DNA of 64,000 nt from Bacteroidia bacterium (GTDB lineage: Bacteria > Bacteroidota > Bacteroidia > J057): positions 62,001-126,000 of the forward strand of contig JAWPMV010000001.1 in the NCBI GenBank assembly GCA_033391075.1, given 5' to 3'. The notes under the pieces are model-generated. The model saw only the letters and a list, made by a program, of their open reading frames with translations, ran no database searches and was not told the DNA's origin. Position 1 is the stretch's first letter. Each line of letters starts with the position of its first letter. Positions 52,426-64,000 of the stretch are shown piece after piece. Both the position numbers and the translations under genes were made by a program.

Positions 52426-52499
52426 GGCGCGGTAGCTCAGATGGTTAGAGCGCAGGATTCATAACCCTGAGGTCGGGGGTTCGACTCCCCCCTGCGCCA
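52426..52499 (+). tRNA. tRNA-Met (CAU anticodon)
   Basis: A 74-base cloverleaf: acceptor GGCGCGG pairs with CTGCGCC with one G-U; D-stem GCTC/GAGC, anticodon loop TTCATAA with CAT, T-stem GGGGG/CCCCC around TTCGACT; the discriminator is A and CCA is not encoded. One A/C mismatch closes the anticodon stem. Elongator or tRNA-Ile2 (lysidine-modified) cannot be separated from sequence alone. It immediately precedes a tyrosine recombinase, so its 3' end is the likely integration site. Confidence 0.95.
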
Positions 52500-52504
52500 C
52501 TAGA

Positions 52505-52547
52505 AAGTCGTAAAATATTGTTTTTCAATGTTTTACGACTTATTTTT
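52505..52547 (+). terminator. strong intrinsic terminator after tRNA
   Basis: A 16-bp stem (52505-52520 and 52526-52541), one G-U pair, loop TTTTT, then TTTTT tail at 52543-52547. Begins 5 bp after the tRNA end. Confidence 0.85.
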
Positions 52548-52554
52548 AAGGGCC

Positions 52555-52588
52555 CGGAGACAAATCTCGGAGACAAATCTCGGAGACA
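52555..52588. repeat. tandem 13-bp repeats CGGAGACAAATCT (two full, one partial)
   Basis: Full copies at 52555-52567 and 52568-52580, partial copy (CGGAGACA) at 52581-52588, between the tRNA terminator and the integrase gene. Tandem direct repeats in this place are often arm-type recombinase or excisionase sites; function inferred. Confidence 0.65.
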
Positions 52589-52625
52589 GGGCTTTTGACA
52601 TATCCACTGAATCGTTGATCAGCTA

Positions 52626-53720
52626 ATGCAGCATCTGCTGAAATTTAGTATGACAACGAATAAAAAAATTTATTCTCCAGACGAGCTTAAGGTGTATGAT
52701 GCAGGTGGTGATATCAGCAAACGCTGGTTTATCCATTACCAGGAGCTCGGCAAGCGCAAAAAGGTCTATGGCGATATCAATCGCTTCAAGAATGCCGAAG
52801 ACCGCTATGCAGCTATCCAAATCCTCAAATCCAAGCTCCTTCATCCCAATGCCAAACGAACAGCTGTAGCCTCCCTCCTCTACGAATACCTGGAACACAA
52901 AAAATCTACCTTGCGTCGCAAGACCTGGATGGATTATTCATCCAAGTTCAAAACCTTTGAGGAGTTCTATAAGGGAGGAGTATTTACTCCTTTGCATGCG
53001 GAAGAGTTCTCAGACTTTCTCTTAGAAGTTAAAAGTCTACACACCACTACCCACAATGATTACATCCGCTTGATGCGAGGAGCTTTTTCTTGGTTGGTCA
53101 AGCGTGGGAAGTTCAAGATCAATCCATTCAAGAATACGGATTACAAAAAATCAGTATCTACTCCTGCACTCTACTTCCAACCCTATCAGATTGAAGAATT
53201 ACGAGAAGCTATTTTGGAAAAAGATCCTGGACTCTGGCTCTTCGTTCAGTTTGTTTACTATTGCTTCGTTCGACCTGGTGAGCTACGTTTTATGAAAGCT
53301 TCTGATATTCTTTGGGAAGATCGGCTTCTCCTTATGCGTCCTGAAGTTTCCAAGAATAAGAAGCAACAATATGTCCGGATTCCAGATGCATTTTACCCAA
53401 AGCTTTATAAAGCCTTTCATGGATGTAAATCCGGTAATTATCTGTTTGGGAAGGATGGCTTACCTGGACCTGGGCATTTGAGCTATAATACAATGGGGAA
53501 TAGGCACAGGAAGATTCTAAGATCGCTCAAATACCCCAAGGGATATATGCTGTATAGCTGGAAGCATACGGGTGCTGTGATGGCTGTGAAAGCCGGAATT
53601 CATATTAAGCAATTGCAGATCCAGCTTAGGCATCATAGTCTGGACCAGGTAGATCAGTATTTAAGAGATTTGGGAGTTAGTGATTTATCGGATTTGGCTA
53701 GGAGTTTTCCTGGGATTTAG
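52626..53720 (+). CDS. tyrosine recombinase/phage integrase
   Basis: A 364-residue site-specific recombinase. N-terminal SAM-like core-binding segment (about 85-175), then the catalytic domain with R in CFVRPGELR, K in the beta hairpin (VSKNKKQQYVRI), H in SWKHTGA, R-H in LRHHSLDQV and the nucleophile Y in QYLRDLG. The layout is that of Bacteroidota island integrases that target tRNA genes. A second possible start is ATG 52650 (MTTNKKIYS). It is more GC-rich than the cargo that follows. Confidence 0.93.
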   Translation: MQHLLKFSMTTNKKIYSPDELKVYDAGGDISKRWFIHYQELGKRKKVYGDINRFKNAEDRYAAIQILKSKLLHPNAKRTAVASLLYEYLEHKKSTLRRKTWMDYSSKFKTFEEFYKGGVFTPLHAEEFSDFLLEVKSLHTTTHNDYIRLMRGAFSWLVKRGKFKINPFKNTDYKKSVSTPALYFQPYQIEELREAILEKDPGLWLFVQFVYYCFVRPGELRFMKASDILWEDRLLLMRPEVSKNKKQQYVRIPDAFYPKLYKAFHGCKSGNYLFGKDGLPGPGHLSYNTMGNRHRKILRSLKYPKGYMLYSWKHTGAVMAVKAGIHIKQLQIQLRHHSLDQVDQYLRDLGVSDLSDLARSFPGI

Positions 53721-53798
53721 CGTTGATTAGCTTCTTTTAGTTAGGTGAGGTTAATAGAACGATACCGGGAAACATTTATATTGTTGTAGTATTTAAAT

Positions 53799-53812
53799 CG
53801 TAAATTTGTTCT
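53799..53812 (+). promoter_or_regulatory. promoter -7 element shared with the ABC-TOPRIM gene
   Basis: CGTAAATTTGTTCT with the -7 box TAAATTTG at 53801-53808, 88 bp before the subtilase ATG. The same 14 bases occur at 57664-57677. A TTG at 53781 or 53784 may be the -33 box. Confidence 0.55.
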
Positions 53813-53895
53813 ATAAATTTATTAGGGCCTAACTTAGGTAAGTATTTGAAATTCAATTTACTGTTTCTGGCCCCTGATCTTAATAATATAGATAT

Positions 53896-56334
53896 ATGGC
53901 AGATAAGCCACATCTCAAACTTAACTCTGCTCAACAACTTGAAAGCTCAATTGAAATGAAATTTAACTATGGCTTTCCTGAGGAGGAGGAAAAAGATAAA
54001 AAAACAAAGGATACTGATTACGAATTTAAAATAGTTCCATTCAGGGGGTACCTAAGTCGAATTAATTCTGAAATTCAGCGTAGGAGATCAGAGAGGAATC
54101 TTTTATTACAAGTCCCTTCCCATATTAACTATGTTAAAATCTCGTTTGTGGGCCAATTTAATATAGAAAAGTACTATTCAGGCTGGATTAATGATTTTGG
54201 CTTGCTAGGTGTGAATTTTTCAAAGTTTAATAAAGAAGGATTATTTGCTGTGGCAGATGAAGAGAGGCTTCATAATTTTCTTGAAAATATTAACAATTTT
54301 ATTATAAAAGAGTCTGGGGTTAATACTAGTATCGAATACAATCGAAAAATCTTGTATGTAGATGAATTTGAACTACTTACAACTGAAGATATCATTAATT
54401 ATCAAGAAGTTGGTTCTTTAATGAACTTTCAATTAGTGAACTACCCAATAGAGTCTCCTGAGGGTAATCTGATTTTGAATCATCTGTATGGTTTTCTTGA
54501 AAGTAATCAGATTATTTATAGTTTGAATTCTGATTCCAATGTTCTTGAAATTGAAAGGGCTTCATCAGAAATAATTGAAGAAATAGTTCGGAATTTTGAT
54601 ATAATTTTGAATGTTACTTCTTCGATTTCCCCTGTAATTGGTCCTTCCTCCTTCAACATTCCTGAAAGGTCATATGGGTTCGTAGTGTCAAATCCTAATG
54701 ATGATTTGCCTATAATTGGAATAATTGATACAGGAATCAGCAACTCTACTCCGCTGGGTCCTATTATTATAGATGATGATTCTTTTAACCTGACAGATTC
54801 GAGTCCATTTATTGACACTGCTAATGATGGTTATGGGCATGGAACTGCTGTAGGAGCATTAGCTGCTTTAGGCCGTAAGGCCTACCAGGCAAATTACAGA
54901 GGGGATATTGCAGCGGATGCTAAGCTGCTATCTATGAAAGTTTTTGAAGGCGATAACGATTATTTGTCTCAAATTAAAGTCTTAAGTCTCCTAAAAAGAG
55001 CTAAATCAAAATATCCGGAAATTAAGATCTTTGTTCTTACAATTTGTTTCAAGGAAAATAAATTAACTAACCAGGATATTTCTACTTATGCATTCGAATT
55101 AGATAGATTTTCTCATGAAAATGATTGTTTAATATTTATAAGTACAGGAAATAATAATGAAGCTGCTAACCAAGCAAATTATGATTTAAGCTATTTTTTA
55201 AATGAGGAGACAAATATATGTTCGCCTGCGGAGAGCATGAATAATATTATTATTGGTGCTGCCGCTGGGAATATGAAAGACGGTGTTTTTAAGGGGATAT
55301 CAAATGGAATGGAATTCCCTACACTCTACACACGGAAGGGAAATATTGAACTAATACCTACGTATCCTAAGACTAAACAAAACAAAAACCTTTTCAAACC
55401 GGATGTAATTGAATTCGGAGGAGATTATGAAGTCTATGGTAGCTTTATTGTACAAGGTGAAGAGGCTTCTATTGAAGTCTTGTCTTCTAATCCGGCAGAA
55501 GGTTATTATAGTCATATAGGTACAAGCTTTTCAACACCCTTAGTGTCCAACATTGCTGCCCAAATTCTTAAACTATATCCATCTTTGAAGTCCCAAACTA
55601 TAAAAGCCTTAATTATTAATGCCGCTTCCTCGGATAAAATTCCTTTTGAAGATCAATTTTCTAAGCTAAGAAATAGACTAGTTGGCCATGGTCTTGTAAA
55701 CCCTTCCAGGAGCCTATTATCAAACGATAATCATATAAATTTCGTTATTGAAGACGAAATTTCTCCTGGAGAATTAAAGGTAATGCCAATAAATCTTCCT
55801 AGATATTTAACAGAAGATGATTTAGGGAAACGTAGAGGTTTATTAAAGGTTTCTTTAACACTTTGTTTTAGCTTTGATCCTGTATTTAATAACCATCTGG
55901 GGTATTGTCCTATTCATATGGCATTTTCAATTTTTCGAAATCATACTGCTCATCAAATCATTCAAAAAGAAGATGAAATCAAATCTAAATTAAAATCAGC
56001 CATTTCTTGGTCGCAGAATAATAGGTATAAACAAAGACCAATTCCTGCTTCTAATTCTCAGAAACTTCAATTTATGATTAATGTGAATGAATTATTAGAT
56101 GAAGATTCGATATTTAAATTAGCCGTTCATTGTTTTCTTAGTCCGCAAATACTCTCAATTGATAAGTATCAAATTAGCCATCCGTTTTCAATGGCTATTT
56201 CAATAGAAGAAAACTTGCCTGAATCCAGGCAAACTGGAAGGCTTTATTCGGAATTAATAGAAATCAATAATCTTGAAAGCATTTCCGAAATTGAAATTGA
56301 TGCTAATGAGTTGGGAGATCTTGAATTAGAATAA
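53896..56334 (+). CDS. S8 (subtilisin-like) protease, IetS-like antiphage component
   Basis: An 812-residue cytoplasmic subtilase: no signal peptide or membrane segment. Residues 1-260 are an unrecognised N-terminal part. The protease domain carries D278 (GIIDTGIS), H315 (YGHGTAVGA) and S544 (GTSFSTP), with a large insertion between His and Ser; the last 200 residues are beta-rich. A cytoplasmic subtilase next to a small AAA+ ATPase matches the IetAS defence pair, but here the two genes converge, stop to stop, with 23 bp between. Codon use is AT-rich compared with the core genes. The cellular target is unknown; protease activation by phage-triggered ATPase is inference. Confidence 0.82.
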   Translation: MADKPHLKLNSAQQLESSIEMKFNYGFPEEEEKDKKTKDTDYEFKIVPFRGYLSRINSEIQRRRSERNLLLQVPSHINYVKISFVGQFNIEKYYSGWINDFGLLGVNFSKFNKEGLFAVADEERLHNFLENINNFIIKESGVNTSIEYNRKILYVDEFELLTTEDIINYQEVGSLMNFQLVNYPIESPEGNLILNHLYGFLESNQIIYSLNSDSNVLEIERASSEIIEEIVRNFDIILNVTSSISPVIGPSSFNIPERSYGFVVSNPNDDLPIIGIIDTGISNSTPLGPIIIDDDSFNLTDSSPFIDTANDGYGHGTAVGALAALGRKAYQANYRGDIAADAKLLSMKVFEGDNDYLSQIKVLSLLKRAKSKYPEIKIFVLTICFKENKLTNQDISTYAFELDRFSHENDCLIFISTGNNNEAANQANYDLSYFLNEETNICSPAESMNNIIIGAAAGNMKDGVFKGISNGMEFPTLYTRKGNIELIPTYPKTKQNKNLFKPDVIEFGGDYEVYGSFIVQGEEASIEVLSSNPAEGYYSHIGTSFSTPLVSNIAAQILKLYPSLKSQTIKALIINAASSDKIPFEDQFSKLRNRLVGHGLVNPSRSLLSNDNHINFVIEDEISPGELKVMPINLPRYLTEDDLGKRRGLLKVSLTLCFSFDPVFNNHLGYCPIHMAFSIFRNHTAHQIIQKEDEIKSKLKSAISWSQNNRYKQRPIPASNSQKLQFMINVNELLDEDSIFKLAVHCFLSPQILSIDKYQISHPFSMAISIEENLPESRQTGRLYSELIEINNLESISEIEIDANELGDLELE

Positions 56335-56335
56335 C

Positions 56336-56358
56336 ATAATATCTTGTAAAGATATTAT
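56336..56358. terminator. short bidirectional hairpin between convergent protease and AAA genes
   Basis: Perfect 10-bp arms ATAATATCTT / AAGATATTAT with a 3-base loop, exactly between the two stop codons (last base overlaps the AAA stop). No clear T-run. Confidence 0.55.
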
Positions 56359-57380
56359 TACTCTGCGTCTAAAGCCCTTTTCTCTTCTTGAATTAATTCA
56401 TTCCAAATGGCGGTACTAATAATAGGGTGGGAAATACTTTTTTGGGATAAGATACTTCTCTTGATTGCCGTCACTAATGTTTTTTGGATACTATAATACG
56501 ATAGATTTTGAGCACCCTCAATTATTTTATTAACAGTTTTTGAGGATTTGTCAAATTTGAAAATTCCATCTTTAAGAGTGAGTGAAATTAATTCTTTGAT
56601 CCTTTTCGTATTAGGCAATTGAAACTCAATACTTAAGTCAAATCTACGCAAAAGAGCTTCATCTATCATTTTCTTCTGATTAGTCGCTGCAATGACAAGG
56701 CTGTCTTGAGGCAAATAATCAAATAATTGAAGAATTGTATTTACAACTCTTTTCATTTCTCCATGATCCTGGTCATAATCTCTTACTTTGCCAATAGAGT
56801 CAAACTCATCAAGAAATATTATACATTCTTCTGAAGATGATTTTCGAAAAATCTTTGCAAGATTTTTACTAGTCTCTCCAAGTTTAGAAGAGACTATTGC
56901 TCCCAGATTTACAACTACCATTAATTTTTCTAGCTCTCCTGCAATTACATAGGAAGTAAGTGTTTTTCCACATCCAGATGGCCCATGAAGAAGGATTTTA
57001 TTAGAAATTGGTAAATCATGTTGTCTTAATAGGTCGATGTTTTGGTGTTCTTGGATAAGAAATTGTAACTTTTCTTTAATGTTATCTTCACAAACTAAAT
57101 TGTTAAGTCGATAATCTGAGGTGAGTTTCTCTAAAATGAGATCTCCAAACTCTCTTTCATCAACCCTATTATAATATTCTTTCGTACCTACCTTGGTAAT
57201 TCCGCTTATTTGTTGCTGACGCAACGATTCTTTTAGGATAGACTGAAGTTGGACCGCGAAATTGACCTTTTTCGTTTTCTTAGAATGCTCAATAAGTTTG
57301 TTTAAGACATCCATTAGTCTTTCTTGATCATTTTCCAGACCATATTTTGCAATGTCTTTTATATAATCAAATTGGCTCAT
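56358..57380 (-). CDS. AAA+ ATPase, IetA-like antiphage component
   Basis: A 340-residue AAA ATPase. N-terminal helical part (1-100), Walker A GPSGCGKT (133-140), Walker B IIFLDE (187-192), sensor 1 N234 in AATN, and arginine finger in RRFD (R245/R246), so it belongs to the classical AAA (FtsH/proteasome-like) clade, oligomeric. It is short, lacking any C-terminal effector, and probably works with the convergent subtilase. In other known defence loci of this type, as I recall, the ATPase and protease genes are in one operon; here they are on opposite strands, so expression would be separately controlled. Confidence 0.82.
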   Translation of the reverse strand: MSQFDYIKDIAKYGLENDQERLMDVLNKLIEHSKKTKKVNFAVQLQSILKESLRQQQISGITKVGTKEYYNRVDEREFGDLILEKLTSDYRLNNLVCEDNIKEKLQFLIQEHQNIDLLRQHDLPISNKILLHGPSGCGKTLTSYVIAGELEKLMVVVNLGAIVSSKLGETSKNLAKIFRKSSSEECIIFLDEFDSIGKVRDYDQDHGEMKRVVNTILQLFDYLPQDSLVIAATNQKKMIDEALLRRFDLSIEFQLPNTKRIKELISLTLKDGIFKFDKSSKTVNKIIEGAQNLSYYSIQKTLVTAIKRSILSQKSISHPIISTAIWNELIQEEKRALDAE

Positions 57381-57691
57381 TCTGGTATTAAAGTAAGGAA
57401 AAAAATAGAAAGTGCTTTTGTTTTGCTAAAAAAAATTGCAAAAATTAAACAACTTGTATTAAAACAAACATTGATTCTTTAATAATACGATTTGGTTCTG
57501 CTATCAACTAATAATTGTTCTCTAAGACAAGTTGGGAAATTGTTGGAGTAATTAAAATTACTTATTCGCGTAATAATTACCATCTAATCCTTTGCTCCAA
57601 TTTATTTTTATACTCGTCCCACTTGCGCCTTTATCGGCATTGCCTCTTTGTGAATCTTTTTTCCGTAAATTTGTTCTCAATCAAAAACACC
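57381..57691. other. AT-rich 311-bp divergent intergenic region
   Basis: Between the AAA gene (minus strand) and the ABC-TOPRIM gene (plus strand). Contains the -7 box TAAATTTG at 57666-57673 for the latter. The open frame before 57692 on the plus strand has no family-like sequence, and no small gene or repeat was seen. Promoter of the AAA gene not identified. Confidence 0.6.
57664..57677 (+). promoter_or_regulatory. promoter -7 element of the ABC-TOPRIM gene
   Basis: CGTAAATTTGTTCT, identical over 14 bases to 53799-53812; TAAATTTG ends 18 bp before ATG 57692, so the leader would be very short. Confidence 0.5.
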
Positions 57692-59617
57692 ATGAAAATA
57701 AGATTACAAGGAAAATTTAGATCCCTATCTGATTTTGAAACTCCCGTGTTACCTAATCTTTGCATAATTACAGGGCTTAATGGATCTGGTAAATCACAAC
57801 TATTAAGTTTACTGAATAATCTAAATGATCGACAGGAAAAGGAGGTCTTCTATGACGGTTATAACTTTAAGATTGAAATTATTTCTGACTCCTATGTTCC
57901 TGGTAAAATTGCCAATTTTCACTTCAATGGAATAAGCTTTAGTCATGATCCTTCATTTAGAGAAACCCCTGAGGCAATTAAACACAGAATTAGTTCGAAT
58001 TTAAATACAATTCGATCAGGAAGCACTGGATATAAATACTCGAAAATAATTGAAAGTATTTCTAAGGCTTCTGGTAAGCCTCTAGACCAACTAACACAAA
58101 AGGATATTGTTGATTATGAAATTTCACCAAAAGACCTAATTGGAGATGAATTTTTTAGAGACCATATACACGAGGTTTTCTATTATTATTGCTGGATTAG
58201 AGAAGAAAATCAAGCAAAAAGTTACAGAAACGAAAAGTTTAGAACTTCCTTTGAGATTTTCTCAAATGAAGAATTCGATAAAAAGTACGAAGCACCTTGG
58301 ATATTAATCAACAAGTTCTTGGAGAAGATCAAATCGCACTATCTGGTTGAAGGAATTTCTGTAGAAGAGTTTTATAAAGACAAAAACTTTATACCTAAAC
58401 TCCGCCATAAAGAATCAAATGAGCTTATCCGATTTAACAGCCTATCATCTGGTGAAAGAGTTATGATGTCTTTGGCTGTAAGTCTATATAATTTTTATGT
58501 AAGTGGATCTCATACTTACCCTAGCATATTATTGTTAGACGAACCAGATGCGATGCTCCATCCCTCCTTAACCCGAGATTTTCTCGAAGTAATTCAGGAA
58601 GAAATTGTTAATAAGCGAAATATTAAAGTTTTCCTGACAACTCATTCCCCTTCGACAGTTGCTTTAGTAGATGAAAATTTTCTCTATGGGATGTCAGCAA
58701 CTGGCAAAAGATTTTTTAAAACTACAAAAGATAAAGCATTGTCTTTATTAACCTCAGGCTTGAATACTTTAAGTATTGATTATGAAAATAGGAGACAGAT
58801 TTTTGTAGAGAGCAAATATGACCAAGAGTTTTATGAGTTAATAGCTAGCAAAATAAAAGACCAACTCATTGAGGGCATTTCCCTGCATTTTATACCTTCT
58901 GGAATTGATAAGGTTCCTGTTTCAAACGAAGTGCCGGATGGCGATAGTAAACGTGTGCGTAATGTAGTAAAAGCGTTGTCTGAAGATGGCGGAAATAGAA
59001 ATATTTTTGGGATAATTGATTGGGACGGTAAAAATAGCCCAAGCATGAATGTCTTTGTTAATGGAAATAGTATTAGATACAGTCTTGAAAACTATATATT
59101 TGATCCCATAATATTGTCTGCCTTTTTATTGGATCTGCAAATTCTGTCAAGAGATCAATTAGGTTTAAGCGATAAAGAGAATTATACAGATCTAAAAACC
59201 TTCTCTGATTTAAGATTGAAGGGAATTTCTGATTTTATTTGCGAAAAGATTAAAGCTAATATAAAACTTGAAAATTTAATTGGTGGCACAAGTACAGTGC
59301 AATACTTAAATGGTAGTAGGATTGAAGTGCCTAAATGGTACTTAGAATATCCTGCCCATGAATTAGAGAATTCCGTAATTGATACATTTCCAAAATTAAG
59401 GTCCGAGTTCGGCCAAAAGGTGAATATGCCTAATAAGCAGAAATGTCTTGACAGCGATAAAAACCAATCTTCAAAGAAAGAAATTGAGGCGAAATTTGAA
59501 AATAGACTTAAACAGCTAATTAAAAGGAAGATTGTCACCAAAACTTTTGACAATCTTCCTGGATTTATTCCTGTCGAAATCAAGGATCTACTCTTGGGTA
59601 TTCAAAAAAAGAGCTGA
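57692..59617 (+). CDS. fused ABC-type ATPase and TOPRIM/DUF4435-like protein (PARIS- or OLD-like defence)
   Basis: A 641-residue cytoplasmic protein. N-terminal ATPase: Walker A GLNGSGKS (28-35), a long inserted helical region (60-245), signature LSSGE (251-255), Walker B LLLDEPDA (D283, E284) and H-loop TTHSP (H318). C-terminal half: acidic motif IFVES (E373), DxD as GIIDWDG (D443, D445) and ENYIFDP (E466), which matches TOPRIM/DUF4435 architecture. This combines in one chain what PARIS encodes as AriA and AriB; OLD nucleases have a comparable layout. ATG 57692 starts directly before the ATPase; the open frame upstream (to 57515) has no domain. AT-rich, likely acquired. It should sense a phage component and act through the TOPRIM part. 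Confidence 0.83.
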   Translation: MKIRLQGKFRSLSDFETPVLPNLCIITGLNGSGKSQLLSLLNNLNDRQEKEVFYDGYNFKIEIISDSYVPGKIANFHFNGISFSHDPSFRETPEAIKHRISSNLNTIRSGSTGYKYSKIIESISKASGKPLDQLTQKDIVDYEISPKDLIGDEFFRDHIHEVFYYYCWIREENQAKSYRNEKFRTSFEIFSNEEFDKKYEAPWILINKFLEKIKSHYLVEGISVEEFYKDKNFIPKLRHKESNELIRFNSLSSGERVMMSLAVSLYNFYVSGSHTYPSILLLDEPDAMLHPSLTRDFLEVIQEEIVNKRNIKVFLTTHSPSTVALVDENFLYGMSATGKRFFKTTKDKALSLLTSGLNTLSIDYENRRQIFVESKYDQEFYELIASKIKDQLIEGISLHFIPSGIDKVPVSNEVPDGDSKRVRNVVKALSEDGGNRNIFGIIDWDGKNSPSMNVFVNGNSIRYSLENYIFDPIILSAFLLDLQILSRDQLGLSDKENYTDLKTFSDLRLKGISDFICEKIKANIKLENLIGGTSTVQYLNGSRIEVPKWYLEYPAHELENSVIDTFPKLRSEFGQKVNMPNKQKCLDSDKNQSSKKEIEAKFENRLKQLIKRKIVTKTFDNLPGFIPVEIKDLLLGIQKKS

Positions 59618-59625
59618 AGCTTATT

Positions 59626-61113
59626 TTATTCAAAATTCAACCTCCTCCTCCTCTCTCTAACTCCCTCATTATACTTCTGAATCCTGCACTTCCTCGAACA
59701 AAACTTTGCCGATTTTCGCTTCATGATTGCCTGTTTCCCACAGTTCTGGCAAGTGATTTCATAGCCATGAATCTCCTTATTCTGCACAATAACTTTCTCA
59801 ACTACCTTTTCAATGATATCGGGGTTTTTGGGTGCAGACGGGTCGTGTCTGCGTGTATGCGCATGCACTTTGTAGCCAATTTTTGAGGATTCCGGTTTTG
59901 ATTTCGGAGGAGCTTGTCCAGGGATTTGTGTAGGCTCAATTCCCGTAATTTGAAAGTTTCGAGATTGAAGAAAAGCTCCCAATCGCTGAAGCTGAATCTC
60001 ATAAGCTGTCTTATCTGAAGACGCTTCCAATGCTCCAAATTCAATTCCTTCGCGAGTTGACCTGGCTTTGTATACCCAACAGAATCTATGGCAAAGAATA
60101 TTAAGAATCTCAGCCAAAACAATAAAGAATACCGCTATCCATGCATTGCCACCTGCGAGCTCGTCGTTTTTCATGAGTGCTGTAGAGAGTTGTGATTGTG
60201 TTTGGCGGTTTTGACGTTCGCGATTGTCTCGGGCTTTGCTGAGTTCATTCTGCATTTTGTCTGATAAGGCAATGGCTTCATTGTTGAGCCGATCTCTGAG
60301 GGTACGGTATTTCTTAGGATCATATCGCTTGATGGATTCCCGCTTTTGGTCGATGGAGGATTGGTAGTTTTGGACAATGCGGAGGGAGTCGCTGGTCCAT
60401 GTGCTTTTAGTTGCCAATTGACTATTCTGAGCTCCGAGCTTTAAGTGCGCGGATTTGTCATTGATCTGATAGACCAGGAGGTATAATCCTAAACCACTTC
60501 CTACGATGGATAGGAGAGAAGTACCCACGGCCTGGTATAAAAGACTCGAACCTGCTTTCTCTTTTTTGACTTTGGCTTTGAAAAAGTCAGAGAGTGAACG
60601 GGTTTTGACGATCTCATTGAGAGATACCAGGCCTATGCACATAATGAGGCTAATGACTCCAATGATGCCATCTGTGAGGGTGATTCCTTCCTCTAAGATG
60701 CGGTTGATGTTGAAGGACAGGAATACTCTTAGAAACAGCAGGGTAATCCCTGAGAGGTAGGGGAAGAGCTGTTTAAAAGCATTGGAAAAAAGGAACTGCA
60801 TGCTTTTTCGATCCCGGTAGGTTACGGGAGCGAGGTCTTCTTGAAAACCTTCGTAATCGTCTTTGCGATCTGCGAGGGTTTGGCTGTCTTCGTAAATGTC
60901 TGTTCCCAGATATTCACGGGTGGAACGATTGAAAAATGGAATGCCCAGCCTTGATTTAGATATTTGGGCGCCAATAAATCCTGGTAGACTCTTCTGATCT
61001 TGGGTCTTTGGAGAGGAAGTCTGAGATTCAAACCCTCTGCTTTCCAGATCCGATAGATCTTTTTGTGATTCCAGCCATATCCCAGATTTCTTAGGTAATG
61101 GAAAACCATCCAA
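59626..61113 (-). CDS. membrane protein with C-terminal zinc-finger-like motif; 5' end disrupted by IS3 remnant
   Basis: The open frame (495 residues) includes about 60 residues read through the IS3 remnant in a different frame. Clear sequence of its own starts near FFNRSTREYLG (about 60935) and shows hydrophobic segments (about 115-135, 145-165, 195-215 and 320-345), a central charged coiled stretch (about 245-315) and a C-terminal CxxC...CxxxC motif (CQNCGK ... FCSRKCR). True start is uncertain: ATG 61113 lies in the IS remnant, and ATG 60801 (MQFLFS) is the first one inside the unambiguous part. Its stop is 8 bp from the stop of the convergent ABC-TOPRIM gene. Function not recognised; the family is likely carried on mobile DNA. 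Confidence 0.55.
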   Translation of the reverse strand: MDGFPLPKKSGIWLESQKDLSDLESRGFESQTSSPKTQDQKSLPGFIGAQISKSRLGIPFFNRSTREYLGTDIYEDSQTLADRKDDYEGFQEDLAPVTYRDRKSMQFLFSNAFKQLFPYLSGITLLFLRVFLSFNINRILEEGITLTDGIIGVISLIMCIGLVSLNEIVKTRSLSDFFKAKVKKEKAGSSLLYQAVGTSLLSIVGSGLGLYLLVYQINDKSAHLKLGAQNSQLATKSTWTSDSLRIVQNYQSSIDQKRESIKRYDPKKYRTLRDRLNNEAIALSDKMQNELSKARDNRERQNRQTQSQLSTALMKNDELAGGNAWIAVFFIVLAEILNILCHRFCWVYKARSTREGIEFGALEASSDKTAYEIQLQRLGAFLQSRNFQITGIEPTQIPGQAPPKSKPESSKIGYKVHAHTRRHDPSAPKNPDIIEKVVEKVIVQNKEIHGYEITCQNCGKQAIMKRKSAKFCSRKCRIQKYNEGVRERRRRLNFE

Positions 61114-61283
61114 AATCCCCAGGCGATGAATCTATTTGTTATCTGATGTAAAAGATCGGCTATGTACTGATCCACTTCTTCAGGCCGGTGGCCTTGTTTG
61201 CGACGATAGTAGGTCTGACGCCGAAAGCTCAGAACAACACACTTACGCCGGACACTTCGATCCGGCTTAATCTGATCTACCAT
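60935..61283 (-). pseudogene. truncated IS3-family transposase OrfB
   Basis: Only the N-terminal HTH_21 part is present (from MVDQIKPDRS to LNQGWAF). The catalytic rve (DDE) domain should begin right after NQxWxxDF; here the sequence departs at WAFHF, and the following codons belong to another gene. The frame is open until 60822 but the tail is not transposase-like. Overlaps OrfA by 7 bases with a slippery heptamer upstream. Confidence 0.8.
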
Positions 61284-61579
61284 TTCTTCCCTTTGTCCCG
61301 GGCCGAAATCTTTTTTGCGTATTCGTAGCCTTCTTGCAAAATCTCATGATCGATCTTCAGCTCTGCATACATTTTCTTGAGCCTAGCATTCTCTTGTTCT
61401 AGCTGTTTGATCCGGCGTTTGTCCTCATCCTGTTCTATGGCCAGGTCTTTTTTCCATTTGTAGAAAGTAGCTGGGCTAATCTGATGGACGCGGCAGATTT
61501 CGTCCACGCTTTGACCAGCATCGTGTTTGGCCAGAATGGCCATCCGTTGGGTCTCTGTGAATTTGCTCTTTTTCATCAC
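61277..61579 (-). CDS. IS3-family transposase OrfA (HTH/leucine-zipper)
   Basis: A 100-residue IS3 OrfA: TETQRMAILAKHDAGQSVDEICRVHQISPATFYKWKKD helix-turn-helix, followed by a leucine-zipper-like KRRIKQLEQENARLKKMYAELK. The A-AAA-AAG slippery heptamer for -1 frameshifting lies at 61310-61316 (minus strand), in the correct frame to read into OrfB. The product is probably intact but the element lacks a full transposase. Confidence 0.88.
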   Translation of the reverse strand: MMKKSKFTETQRMAILAKHDAGQSVDEICRVHQISPATFYKWKKDLAIEQDEDKRRIKQLEQENARLKKMYAELKIDHEILQEGYEYAKKISARDKGKKW

Positions 61580-61797
61580 TGCTTTTGTTGAATGTAAAAA
61601 TTATCCATGATTTTTTCTACTTTTCAACGGGTGCTCCGTTTGGGAAGAGGACAATGCTGCTCGTCCTGAAAACCTTTGGAATTTTGTTATGTTTAAACTT
61701 CCTGATCTTAAAGAAACAGTTCATGGGTTATTGGAAAGTAAATGATTGGTATTTAAGAATTTCTCTACTTAGAATTTCTAACAATATCAACCTATCT

Positions 61798-64000
61798 TTA
61801 TTTTGCCCAATACTTCTTTAAGGGGAGGAAACCAGAAACAGTTATACGTTTTTCAAGCAACATCTGTATATGATCATAATTCAACCTATCCTTGCCAGGA
61901 TCAACATAGTTAAGTTTTTTAAGTTTTAATAAAGGAGTAAGGTCAATGTCAGATGTATTTCCAAGGTAAATTGTCTCTAATTCTTGGAGGTTTGAAAGAG
62001 GGGAGAGATCCTTTACGGAAGAGTATACAAGATGTAATTCTTTTAATTGTTTCAACTCTGAAAGAGGAGATAGATCCTCTACCTCAATGGAATTAAGATT
62101 TAAATATTCAAGGTGTATAAGTCCAGAAAGGGGGGAAAGATCTCTTAATCGATAGAGGTAGGCATCTAAACTTGGTTCAAGTTCTAAGTGCCTTAAATTC
62201 TTAAGCTTAGAAAGGGTTGAAAAATTTTTTACTTTTGTATTATACAGGTTAAGGTATTGTAATTGTTCCATCTTTGAGAGGAAAGAAAGATCTATATATA
62301 CATCATCTACTAATGTTATTGTGACCCCTGAACCCTGCTTTCTTGTTTTCTTGTCTGCATCTAAAAAGCGAATATCTAAATGTTTAAGGTTATATAACTC
62401 TGATAAAGGGGAAATATCTAATACTTCTGTAAAAGATAGGTCTAATGATTCCAAATTTTGAAGATTTGAAATAGGAGAGATATCAAGCGTAAATTCGTGC
62501 GCAGCTCGCCTCAGGTCAAGGAGTTTTAATCCATTAAGTTCGCCTAATTTGGTCAGATCAAAAATTGGTGGCCGAATCACATTACTGTATCCACCTCGAG
62601 TGTAATGTTTCGCTTTTGCCCACTTCTCAGCTAGGTCCCAATTTTTAGGCTCCTTAAATAAGGGATAAAATTCTCCACCTTCAATATCTATCCCTTCAAT
62701 CTCAGCGTCAAGAATACTCCTATTTACTCTTGCATTAGTAATGGTAGCGTGCTTAAGATTGCATTTTCTTAAATCCGCAAAGATAAAATCAACATTTGGA
62801 AGATAAGCGTGTGATAGGTCTTCTCCAGCGAGGATATCAGGATCCATCTTTAGTAGGATATTTGCTGCATTGCTTCCCATCCATTTATATTTATCCTTCT
62901 TATTACTCTCTTTTATAAGCTCGAGGAGCTTGCCTTTTTGGGGATTCAATCCTCTAATAAAAACATTAAGTTCTTCTGTTAATTTAGTCCTAGAAAAATA
63001 GTCTAATTCTTTATTATTGATCTCCTTTACAAATTTTCTAGCAGTAAGGTAATCTCTGAAAGATTTATGTGAGATCCTGAAACGCTCATTGCCTTCATTT
63101 ATCAAAAACGAAAAGGTTAAAAATTCATTTAGGTATTTTTGATATTCCCACTCTCTTTTTATGTCAAAATAAGATTTTAATTCTAACTCATCTTCTAGTA
63201 GTGGCACTTCAAAATAAAGTGTATCGTTCATATGCATCCAAGCGGAAAGTTTCTCAAGAATTTCTATTCGTTCGCCTTGGGAAATTTTAAACGGGATTTC
63301 CGTATCTTTTCTATCAAGTTCAGAAGTGATTGCCTCCTCATATAAATCGGTTGCCTTTATAGATTCCTGGTCTTTCTTGTTTTTAATGGCGCCTTCTAAA
63401 TGATCAATAATAATCTGTAGTAAAACAGGGCGGGAGGCCAAATCTTTTAATCCTGGTATCTTTTGTATTTGTCTCCATCTTTCTTCTGGATTCTTATCAT
63501 GACTTTTTAAATACTGCCTGATTTGTTTATCATTAAAACTATTCAAATGAAGAAAGGGTAAATCTTTTTCTTGTTCCACTAAGAAGGTGTTCCAACGTTC
63601 TTTATCCGATGAAAAATATTCTTGTCTTACAGTCAAAATTATTTTTGACTTTGAATGGCTACTAATTAATCCCTTTATTTTAAGATAATTAGTACGTTTT
63701 TTACTACTATCAATCTCTTGGGTCATTTCATCAAATCCATCTAGAATAAGCAAAAACTCTCCAGAATTAAGTTTCTCTTTAAACCGATCCAAACTGAGAT
63801 CTTTGATAGCTTTATTGTTAAGCTGTTTAAGTATAAATCCGTCCATACTTTCCTCAAAGTCCCTCAGAGTGAAATAAAATGGAATCGGCTGCTTATAACA
63901 TTGAAATATTTGGTTCTCTCTATCTATCTCTAGATGATTATGAGCTAATTGATGGGTCAAATATTCAGAAAAAGTGGTTTTACCTGTTCCATATTCTCCT
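61798..64000 (-). CDS. NACHT-type STAND NTPase with pentapeptide-like and leucine-rich repeats (bacterial NLR-like), 5' end outside window
   Basis: The frame is open to the window end. The visible N-terminal part starts in Walker A GEYGTGKTTFSEYL (63998 downwards), Walker B LLILDGFDEMT, and the NACHT-type sensor region ILTVRQEY. A winged-helix and helical segment follows (LASRPVLLQIIIDHLEG, RISHKSFRDYLTARKFV). Then come pentapeptide-like A(D/N)L units at about 62670-62850 and, from about 62560 to 61830, at least six 22-residue leucine-rich repeats built on DLSPLSxLxxLxxLxL. Such proteins are bacterial homologues of NLR immune receptors. The effector domain at the N-terminus lies outside the window, so the killing mechanism cannot be read. 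AT-rich like the other cargo. Confidence 0.85.
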   Translation of the reverse strand, partial: GEYGTGKTTFSEYLTHQLAHNHLEIDRENQIFQCYKQPIPFYFTLRDFEESMDGFILKQLNNKAIKDLSLDRFKEKLNSGEFLLILDGFDEMTQEIDSSKKRTNYLKIKGLISSHSKSKIILTVRQEYFSSDKERWNTFLVEQEKDLPFLHLNSFNDKQIRQYLKSHDKNPEERWRQIQKIPGLKDLASRPVLLQIIIDHLEGAIKNKKDQESIKATDLYEEAITSELDRKDTEIPFKISQGERIEILEKLSAWMHMNDTLYFEVPLLEDELELKSYFDIKREWEYQKYLNEFLTFSFLINEGNERFRISHKSFRDYLTARKFVKEINNKELDYFSRTKLTEELNVFIRGLNPQKGKLLELIKESNKKDKYKWMGSNAANILLKMDPDILAGEDLSHAYLPNVDFIFADLRKCNLKHATITNARVNRSILDAEIEGIDIEGGEFYPLFKEPKNWDLAEKWAKAKHYTRGGYSNVIRPPIFDLTKLGELNGLKLLDLRRAAHEFTLDISPISNLQNLESLDLSFTEVLDISPLSELYNLKHLDIRFLDADKKTRKQGSGVTITLVDDVYIDLSFLSKMEQLQYLNLYNTKVKNFSTLSKLKNLRHLELEPSLDAYLYRLRDLSPLSGLIHLEYLNLNSIEVEDLSPLSELKQLKELHLVYSSVKDLSPLSNLQELETIYLGNTSDIDLTPLLKLKKLNYVDPGKDRLNYDHIQMLLEKRITVSGFLPLKKYWAK

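What the first reader, a model, noticed from the sequence alone, without database searches (positions are those of the whole stretch)
57692..59617. Single-chain ABC ATPase plus TOPRIM/DUF4435-like protein
The protein has full ABC motifs and, after the H-loop, a TOPRIM-like E...DxD...E set. PARIS splits these into AriA and AriB; here they are one chain with a 190-residue insertion in the ATPase. It could be a fused PARIS, an OLD-class nuclease, or a new member.
Basis: partly seen in the sequence, partly recalled or inferred. Interest (0 to 1): 0.7.

Follow-up and report, generated by a model that had tools for sequence, protein, structure and literature searches.

The report
Single-chain PARIS-like anti-phage ATPase-nuclease
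A bacterial gene on a small mobile defence island makes one protein that joins an infection-sensing ATPase directly to a nuclease shaped like the PARIS immune toxin AriB, which raises the testable question of how such a nuclease is switched on when it cannot be released.

Summary
Window 57692-59617 (+) encodes a 641-residue protein with a complete ABC ATPase (residues 1-~345) and a C-terminal TOPRIM nuclease (E373, D443/D445, E466 invariant in the relatives). A model of the C-terminal half alone (pLDDT 83.6) matches full-length AriB, the PARIS effector, at Z 12.7 and 12.1; OLD TOPRIM domains follow at 7.8 or less. Profile comparison agrees: 95.7% probability to nine AriB references, with E, DxD and RYSIEN aligned. 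I do not file it as PARIS: DUF4435, the published marker, is undetected in the protein, it is far from the known fused-AriAB models, and its ATPase lies in its own clade, apart from AriA and known fused PARIS. Relatives are rare, patchy, solo genes with no conserved partner, several beside known defence genes. The gene sits on a 12.5-kb tRNA-Met island with IetAS-like genes and a NACHT-LRR protein. Best reading: a stand-alone abortive-infection protein whose AriB-like nuclease, probably an RNase, is activated in place because it is covalently tethered. Function is inferred, not shown. New variant of a known kind.

The parts
57692..59617 (+). Single-chain ABC ATPase + AriB-like TOPRIM protein, 641 aa (P0001)
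57692..58726 (+). ABC ATPase half, residues 1-~345 (Walker A 28-34, signature 251-255, Walker B 279-284, H-loop 316-320), with the usual helical inter-lobe region 44-~237
   Evidence: Pfam AAA_21 7e-16; model vs PtuA Z 14.7, AriA Z 12.2
58727..58793 (+). Short hinge (about residues 346-367) between ATPase and TOPRIM, with invariant L353-T354
   Evidence: alignments; models
58794..59614 (+). AriB-like TOPRIM effector half, residues ~368-641 (E373; D443, D445; R462..E466-N-Y; D471-P472)
   Evidence: VIA-align vs AriB 8ux9_A Z 12.7, 8v46_D Z 12.1; hhalign to AriB references 95.7%
52426..52500 (+). Context: tRNA-Met gene; its 3' end (52486-52501) is the left attachment site of the island; the 16-bp copy lies 12,520 bp further right, beyond the window end (65006-65021 in window numbering)
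52626..53720 (+). Context: tyrosine recombinase (integrase) of the island; not part of the system
   Evidence: Pfam Phage_integrase 1.9e-7
53896..56334 (+). Context: IetS-like subtilase (neighbouring separate defence module, not part of the system)
   Evidence: PADLOC IetS 1.5e-45
56358..57380 (-). Context: IetA-like AAA ATPase (neighbouring separate defence module, not part of the system)
   Evidence: PADLOC IetA 3e-72

Best explanation
It is a one-gene anti-phage protein of the ABC ATPase-TOPRIM class that works like PARIS with sensor and effector in one chain. SHOWN by computation: an ABC ATPase half related to AriA/PtuA is joined by a hinge of roughly 20 residues to a half with the full-length fold of AriB, with the TOPRIM acidic set intact. 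INFERRED: the ATPase half assembles into an oligomer that holds the nuclease half inactive; a phage protein or another infection signal changes the ATPase assembly; two tethered TOPRIM halves then pair and cut RNA (tRNA is the leading guess, by analogy with AriB), stopping translation and aborting the infection. Because the nuclease is covalently attached through a short hinge, activation must happen in place rather than by release of AriB as in two-gene PARIS, unless a protease cuts the hinge.
For: C-terminal model (pLDDT 83.6, pTM 0.81) vs AriB 8ux9_A Z 12.7 (204 of 306 residues, chain 14-308) and 8v46_D Z 12.1; OLD TOPRIM domains at 7.8 and 6.4, other folds 7.1 or less. The full-length model gave AriB Z 13.1/12.1 for residues 355-638 and AriA Z 12.2 for 1-340. 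hhalign of twelve family C-termini vs nine AriB references: 95.7%, E 8.9e-9, aligning VES/VED, IDWD/IDGD and RYSIENY/RYCIENH; weaker for the OLD, GajA-type and other TOPRIM rows tested. Catalytic residues invariant. Stand-alone distribution in Bacteroidota, cyanobacteria and proteobacteria, with no conserved partner gene. Defence neighbours: AbiH, PD-T7-4, TIR genes, type I RM, IetAS. On a tRNA-Met integrative island. PARIS mechanism (sensor AriA, tRNase AriB, release and dimerisation) from PMC12409363.
Against: No function has been measured. DUF4435 (PF14491) is not detected in the protein and stays below its cut-off in relatives (22.2 and 18.4 vs 27 bits). The ATPase tree puts the family in its own clade, not with AriA or with known fused AriAB. 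Foldseek alone gave no C-terminal hit at E <= 0.001; the AriB match rests on the second-look alignment (13-14% identity) and the profile comparison. TOPRIM proteins of this class also cut DNA (OLD, GajA), so RNA as target is only an analogy. The hinge region is modelled with modest confidence (pLDDT about 50-67).
Confidence: 0.64

Rival explanations
1. It is a stand-alone OLD-like (class 1) nuclease or HEC-04/IbfA-type protein: an ABC-TOPRIM DNA nuclease that cuts or nicks phage or host DNA on infection.
For: Single gene, ABC + TOPRIM in one chain as in class 1 OLD (PMC10568477) and HEC-04/IbfA (PMC12111858). OLD TOPRIM domains are the next structural matches (Z 7.8, 6.4). IbfA aligns with the family profile through the ATPase and the first TOPRIM strand (97.2%).
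Against: AriB matches clearly better, over its full length (Z 12.7, 12.1), and the RYSIENY motif is shared with AriB. hhalign of the family C-terminus to the GajA-type (0.1%) and OLD-like (58.7%) C-termini sampled is weaker than to AriB.
Confidence: 0.22
2. It is a part of a multi-gene system on the island, for example working with the adjacent IetA/IetS-like pair (a subtilase could even cut the hinge to free the nuclease).
For: IetA is divergently transcribed 311 bp away, with IetS beyond it; a fused effector would be freed most simply by a protease.
Against: None of the relatives examined shows IetAS or any other constant partner; the modules are more simply separate cargo of one defence island.
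Confidence: 0.05
3. It is a housekeeping DNA-repair or chromosome-maintenance ABC-TOPRIM protein, like Cran1 in Sulfolobales, and not defence.
For: At least one OLD-family class acts in the cell cycle (PMC12796447).
Against: Rare and patchy (7 of 395 genomes of the class, 2 of 395 of the phylum, 3 of 398 in the phylum of the Comamonadaceae MAG G730), on plasmids and an integrative island, beside defence genes.
Confidence: 0.06

Closest known systems
PARIS, two-gene (AriA + AriB; OLD class 4)
   Same: ABC ATPase related to AriA; C-terminal half with the full-length AriB fold and aligned E / DxD / RY-x-IEN motifs
   Different: One chain with a short hinge instead of two proteins, so AriB release is not possible without proteolysis; ATPase in a separate clade (100/99 vs AriA 99/96); DUF4435 not detected in the protein
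Fused PARIS (single-gene AriAB; Rousset et al. 2022; PADLOC AriAB)
   Same: Same domain order in one chain; family profile aligns with five fused AriAB references over 391 columns including TOPRIM (98.3%)
   Different: References L048 and L053 score 634 and 466 bits to PADLOC model PDLC02982; this protein reaches 73 bits to the other model, PDLC02981, which relatives with a different TOPRIM reach too. Separate ATPase clade
HEC-04 / IbfA
   Same: Single-gene ABC ATPase-TOPRIM with shown anti-phage activity (PMC12111858)
   Different: Shorter (518 aa, R64 copy); its alignment with the family profile ends early in the TOPRIM domain
OLD class 1 and 2 (P2 Old, TsOLD, GajA) and retron I-B OLD (class 3)
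   Same: ABC ATPase followed by TOPRIM in one chain; PADLOC ATPase-Toprim_I-B 4.9e-22
   Different: No GajB helicase, no reverse transcriptase or known ncRNA nearby; OLD TOPRIM structures match less well than AriB
Uncharacterised OLD-family clades U1-U11 (PMC12796447)
   Same: May overlap one of them: deep, uncharacterised ABC-TOPRIM clades
   Different: Could not be compared: the dataset was not available here

Membership tests
PARIS, two-gene | ariA and ariB as separate adjacent genes | tested here: not met
   One intact chain; neighbours are IetA-like and a 495-aa ORF without a family
PARIS (published detection rule, Rousset 2022) | AAA_15 (>=32 bits) or AAA_21 (>=27 bits) domain | tested here: met
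   56.6 and 59.6 bits; rule read
PARIS (published detection rule, Rousset 2022) | DUF4435 / PF14491 domain (>=27 bits) | tested here: not met
   PF14491 absent in this protein at E<=1, 22.2 and 18.4 bits in two relatives
Fused PARIS (Rousset 2022) | Score over the authors' own AAA_15/21+DUF4435 fusion HMM thresholds (80 / 20 bits) | tested here: inconclusive
   Only PADLOC's models were available: 73 bits to PDLC02981, against 466-634 bits to PDLC02982 for reference fusions; which threshold applies to PDLC02981 is not known here
PARIS | Effector with AriB fold and TOPRIM acidic residues | tested here: met
   Z 12.7/12.1 to AriB over nearly its full length; E373, D443, D445, E466 invariant
PARIS | ATPase in the AriA clade | tested here: not met
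   Own clade 100/99; AriA clade 99/96; fused AriAB clade 100/100; long branches, limited sampling
PARIS | Triggered by anti-restriction proteins (Ocr and others); tRNase output | not testable with these tools
   Needs experiment
[quoted passage not shown]
   No helicase among the neighbouring ORFs
OLD class 3 (retron I-B) | Adjacent reverse transcriptase and ncRNA | tested here: not met
   No RT among the neighbours scanned against Pfam; no Rfam hit in the window but a tRNA
OLD class 1 | Solo ABC-TOPRIM gene with OLD-type TOPRIM | tested here: inconclusive
   Solo; TOPRIM closer to AriB than to OLD, but OLD is next best at Z 7.8
HEC-04 / IbfA | Match to HEC-04 profile over ATPase and TOPRIM | tested here: inconclusive
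   HEC-04 not among the 25 best of 104 PADLOC hits shown for this protein; IbfA aligns mostly through the ATPase

The most novel reading that the evidence does not exclude
A distinct lineage of single-chain ABC-AriB-like immune proteins in which the nuclease is switched on in place, without release from the sensor, unlike two-gene PARIS; and whose ATPase chassis has been paired with at least two different TOPRIM effectors (the window's AriB-like one, and an unlike one in L002/L015/L023, with the genome of the window carrying one of each).
Probability: 0.4. Interest if true: 0.6.

Novelty: new variant of a known kind. Interest (0 to 1): 0.42.

Why it matters
In two-gene PARIS the effector AriB is freed from the AriA hexamer to act. 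A natural protein with the same two halves joined by a short hinge would show whether release is needed at all, and would be a compact one-gene system for asking how ABC ATPases of this class hold a TOPRIM nuclease silent. It also shows that AriB-like effectors extend beyond what the DUF4435 model detects, so PARIS-like systems are probably under-counted. Fused PARIS was already reported and its status as a class was left open (PMC10568477); this family is a candidate to help settle that.

Tried and rejected
Direct phmmer against PDB sequences found mainly ABC transporters, Rad50 and one OLD protein at weak scores; the family profile then found retron PtuA and AriA. Foldseek on the C-terminal model gave no significant hit; VIA-align found AriB. 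Phage records and viral contigs: no relative. PF14491 in the own genome: none, so no DUF4435-type PARIS was detected there. Repeated swapping of the TOPRIM module: the tree leans that way (sub2 rows nested among family rows) but a single clade is not rejected (p-AU 0.129), so I do not claim more than one swap. First hhalign run used gapped sequences by mistake and was replaced. PADLOC AriAB hit as proof of PARIS: rejected, because relatives with a different TOPRIM score the same. IbfA plasmid record MW590592 not held; the homologue on R64 was used. The Deep et al. PARIS structure paper was not held.

Full report
Observation. Window 57692-59617 (+) is an intact gene for a 641-residue protein. 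The mechanical ORF begins at TTG 57515, but relatives align from the ATG at 57692. Pfam finds AAA_21 (7e-16) and AAA_15 (4e-15). AAA_21 aligns 25-323 of the protein to 3-303 of its 304 positions, so the '190-residue insertion' is the normal inter-lobe region of this ATPase class and not a special feature.

What the C-terminal half is. An AlphaFold2 model of the whole protein is moderate (pLDDT 68.7). VIA-align gave AriB (8ux9_A Z 13.1; 8v46_D Z 12.1) for residues 355-638, and PtuA (Z 14.7) and AriA (Z 12.2) for the N-terminal half. The C-terminal half folded alone with seven relatives is good (pLDDT 83.6, pTM 0.81). Its matches are AriB Z 12.7 and 12.1 over nearly the whole AriB chain, then OLD TOPRIM domains at 7.8 and 6.4 and other folds at 7.1 or less. 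Foldseek by itself did not reach significance, so the match rests on the second-look aligner plus profile evidence. The profile evidence comes from sequence alone: twelve family C-termini against nine AriB (DUF4435) proteins, eight of them taken with a full adjacent ariA and one with a shorter ariA ORF, give 95.7% probability, E 8.9e-9, with VES/VED, IDWD/IDGD and RYSIENY/RYCIENH in register. GajA-type, OLD-like and other TOPRIM rows gave lower values in the same test.

What the N-terminal half is. The family profile finds retron PtuA and AriA in the PDB. In an ATPase tree of 33 rows the family (with three relatives that carry a different TOPRIM) is a starred clade (100/99), apart from two-gene AriA (99/96) and from known fused AriAB (100/100). 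Branches are long and the deep order is not firm.

Membership. By the published rule for PARIS (AAA_15/21 plus DUF4435) the ATPase part is met and DUF4435 is not: PF14491 is undetected in the protein and reaches only 22.2 and 18.4 bits in two relatives (cut-off 27). Fused references found here score 634 and 466 bits to PADLOC's AriAB model PDLC02982; the window protein scores 73 bits to the other AriAB model, a score that relatives with a different TOPRIM also reach, so it is not diagnostic. I therefore describe the protein as PARIS-like in architecture and probable action, without filing it as PARIS. The other classes lack their marks: no GajB helicase, no reverse transcriptase, no known retron RNA.

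Distribution and context. Relatives were found in 7 of 395 genomes of the class, 2 of 395 of the phylum and 3 of 398 of the phylum of G730 (thresholds differ, and each count includes the genome used as the centre), and on plasmids of Planktothrix, Croceicoccus, Rhizobium and Caballeronia. These counts include a few relatives with the other TOPRIM (L015, L023). None was found in phage records or viral contigs. They are solo genes with no conserved partner. Several stand beside defence genes: PD-T7-4 directly upstream (L012; 282 bits), AbiH (L011), TIR genes (L008), type I restriction (L006). In the window the gene lies on an island: tRNA-Met 52426-52500, integrase 52626-53720, a 16-bp copy of the tRNA 3' end 12,520 bp to the right, G+C 35.7% against 43% outside. 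The island also carries IetA/IetS-like genes and a NACHT-LRR protein that runs past the window end.

Mechanism. In PARIS, AriA is the sensor and AriB a tRNase that AriA sequesters and, on infection, releases to dimerise (PMC12409363). Here the two halves are one chain with a hinge of roughly 20 residues that holds invariant L353-T354. Release is not possible without proteolysis, so the most economical model is in-place activation: the ATPase assembly keeps TOPRIM halves apart, a phage signal rearranges the assembly, paired TOPRIM halves cut RNA. The architecture is shown by computation; assembly, trigger, substrate and activation are inferred. A protease step using the neighbouring IetS is possible in principle but is disfavoured because relatives show no IetS beside them.

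Novelty. Single-gene PARIS fusions and single-gene ABC-TOPRIM defence proteins (HEC-04/IbfA, PMC12111858) are known. This family is a separate lineage with an AriB-like effector that the DUF4435 model does not detect. I rate it a new variant of a known kind. It may coincide with one of the uncharacterised OLD clades U1-U11 of PMC12796447, which could not be checked.

Noticed in passing
window 52426-64000, continuing to 65021 (L057:1021): A 12.5-kb integrative island at tRNA-Met with an integrase, a 16-bp att repeat (TCCCCCCTGCGCCACT) and low G+C; both ends carry several GGAGACAAA-type repeats that look like recombinase arm sites.
   Followed up: partly
window 53896-57380: IetS-like subtilase (+) and IetA-like AAA ATPase (-) are convergent, not an operon; both score well below the NCBIfam cut-offs (120.8 vs 900 and 206.7 vs 510 bits), so they are divergent IetAS.
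   Followed up: no
window 61798-64000, to 64809 in window numbering (L057:809): A 1003-aa protein with NACHT, pentapeptide and LRR regions that runs past the window end; probably an NLR-like defence protein.
   Followed up: no
window 59626-61579: A 495-aa ORF with likely transmembrane stretches and a C-terminal Cys zinc-finger-like motif overlaps, at its 5' end, what looks like an IS3-type transposase orfA/orfB pair (60822-61579); no family above cut-off.
   Followed up: no
L002 / L031 (own genome, C1 about 5.657 Mb): A second ABC-TOPRIM protein with the same kind of ATPase but a different TOPRIM (TEGITD...LLDFDxEGY), next to a 1330-aa NACHT protein and leucine-rich-repeat proteins; same type in L015 and L023.
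   Followed up: partly
L012:217-2793: A PD-T7-4 defence gene (DUF4145) abuts the ORF of a relative of the window protein, a possible two-gene unit or simple defence clustering.
   Followed up: no
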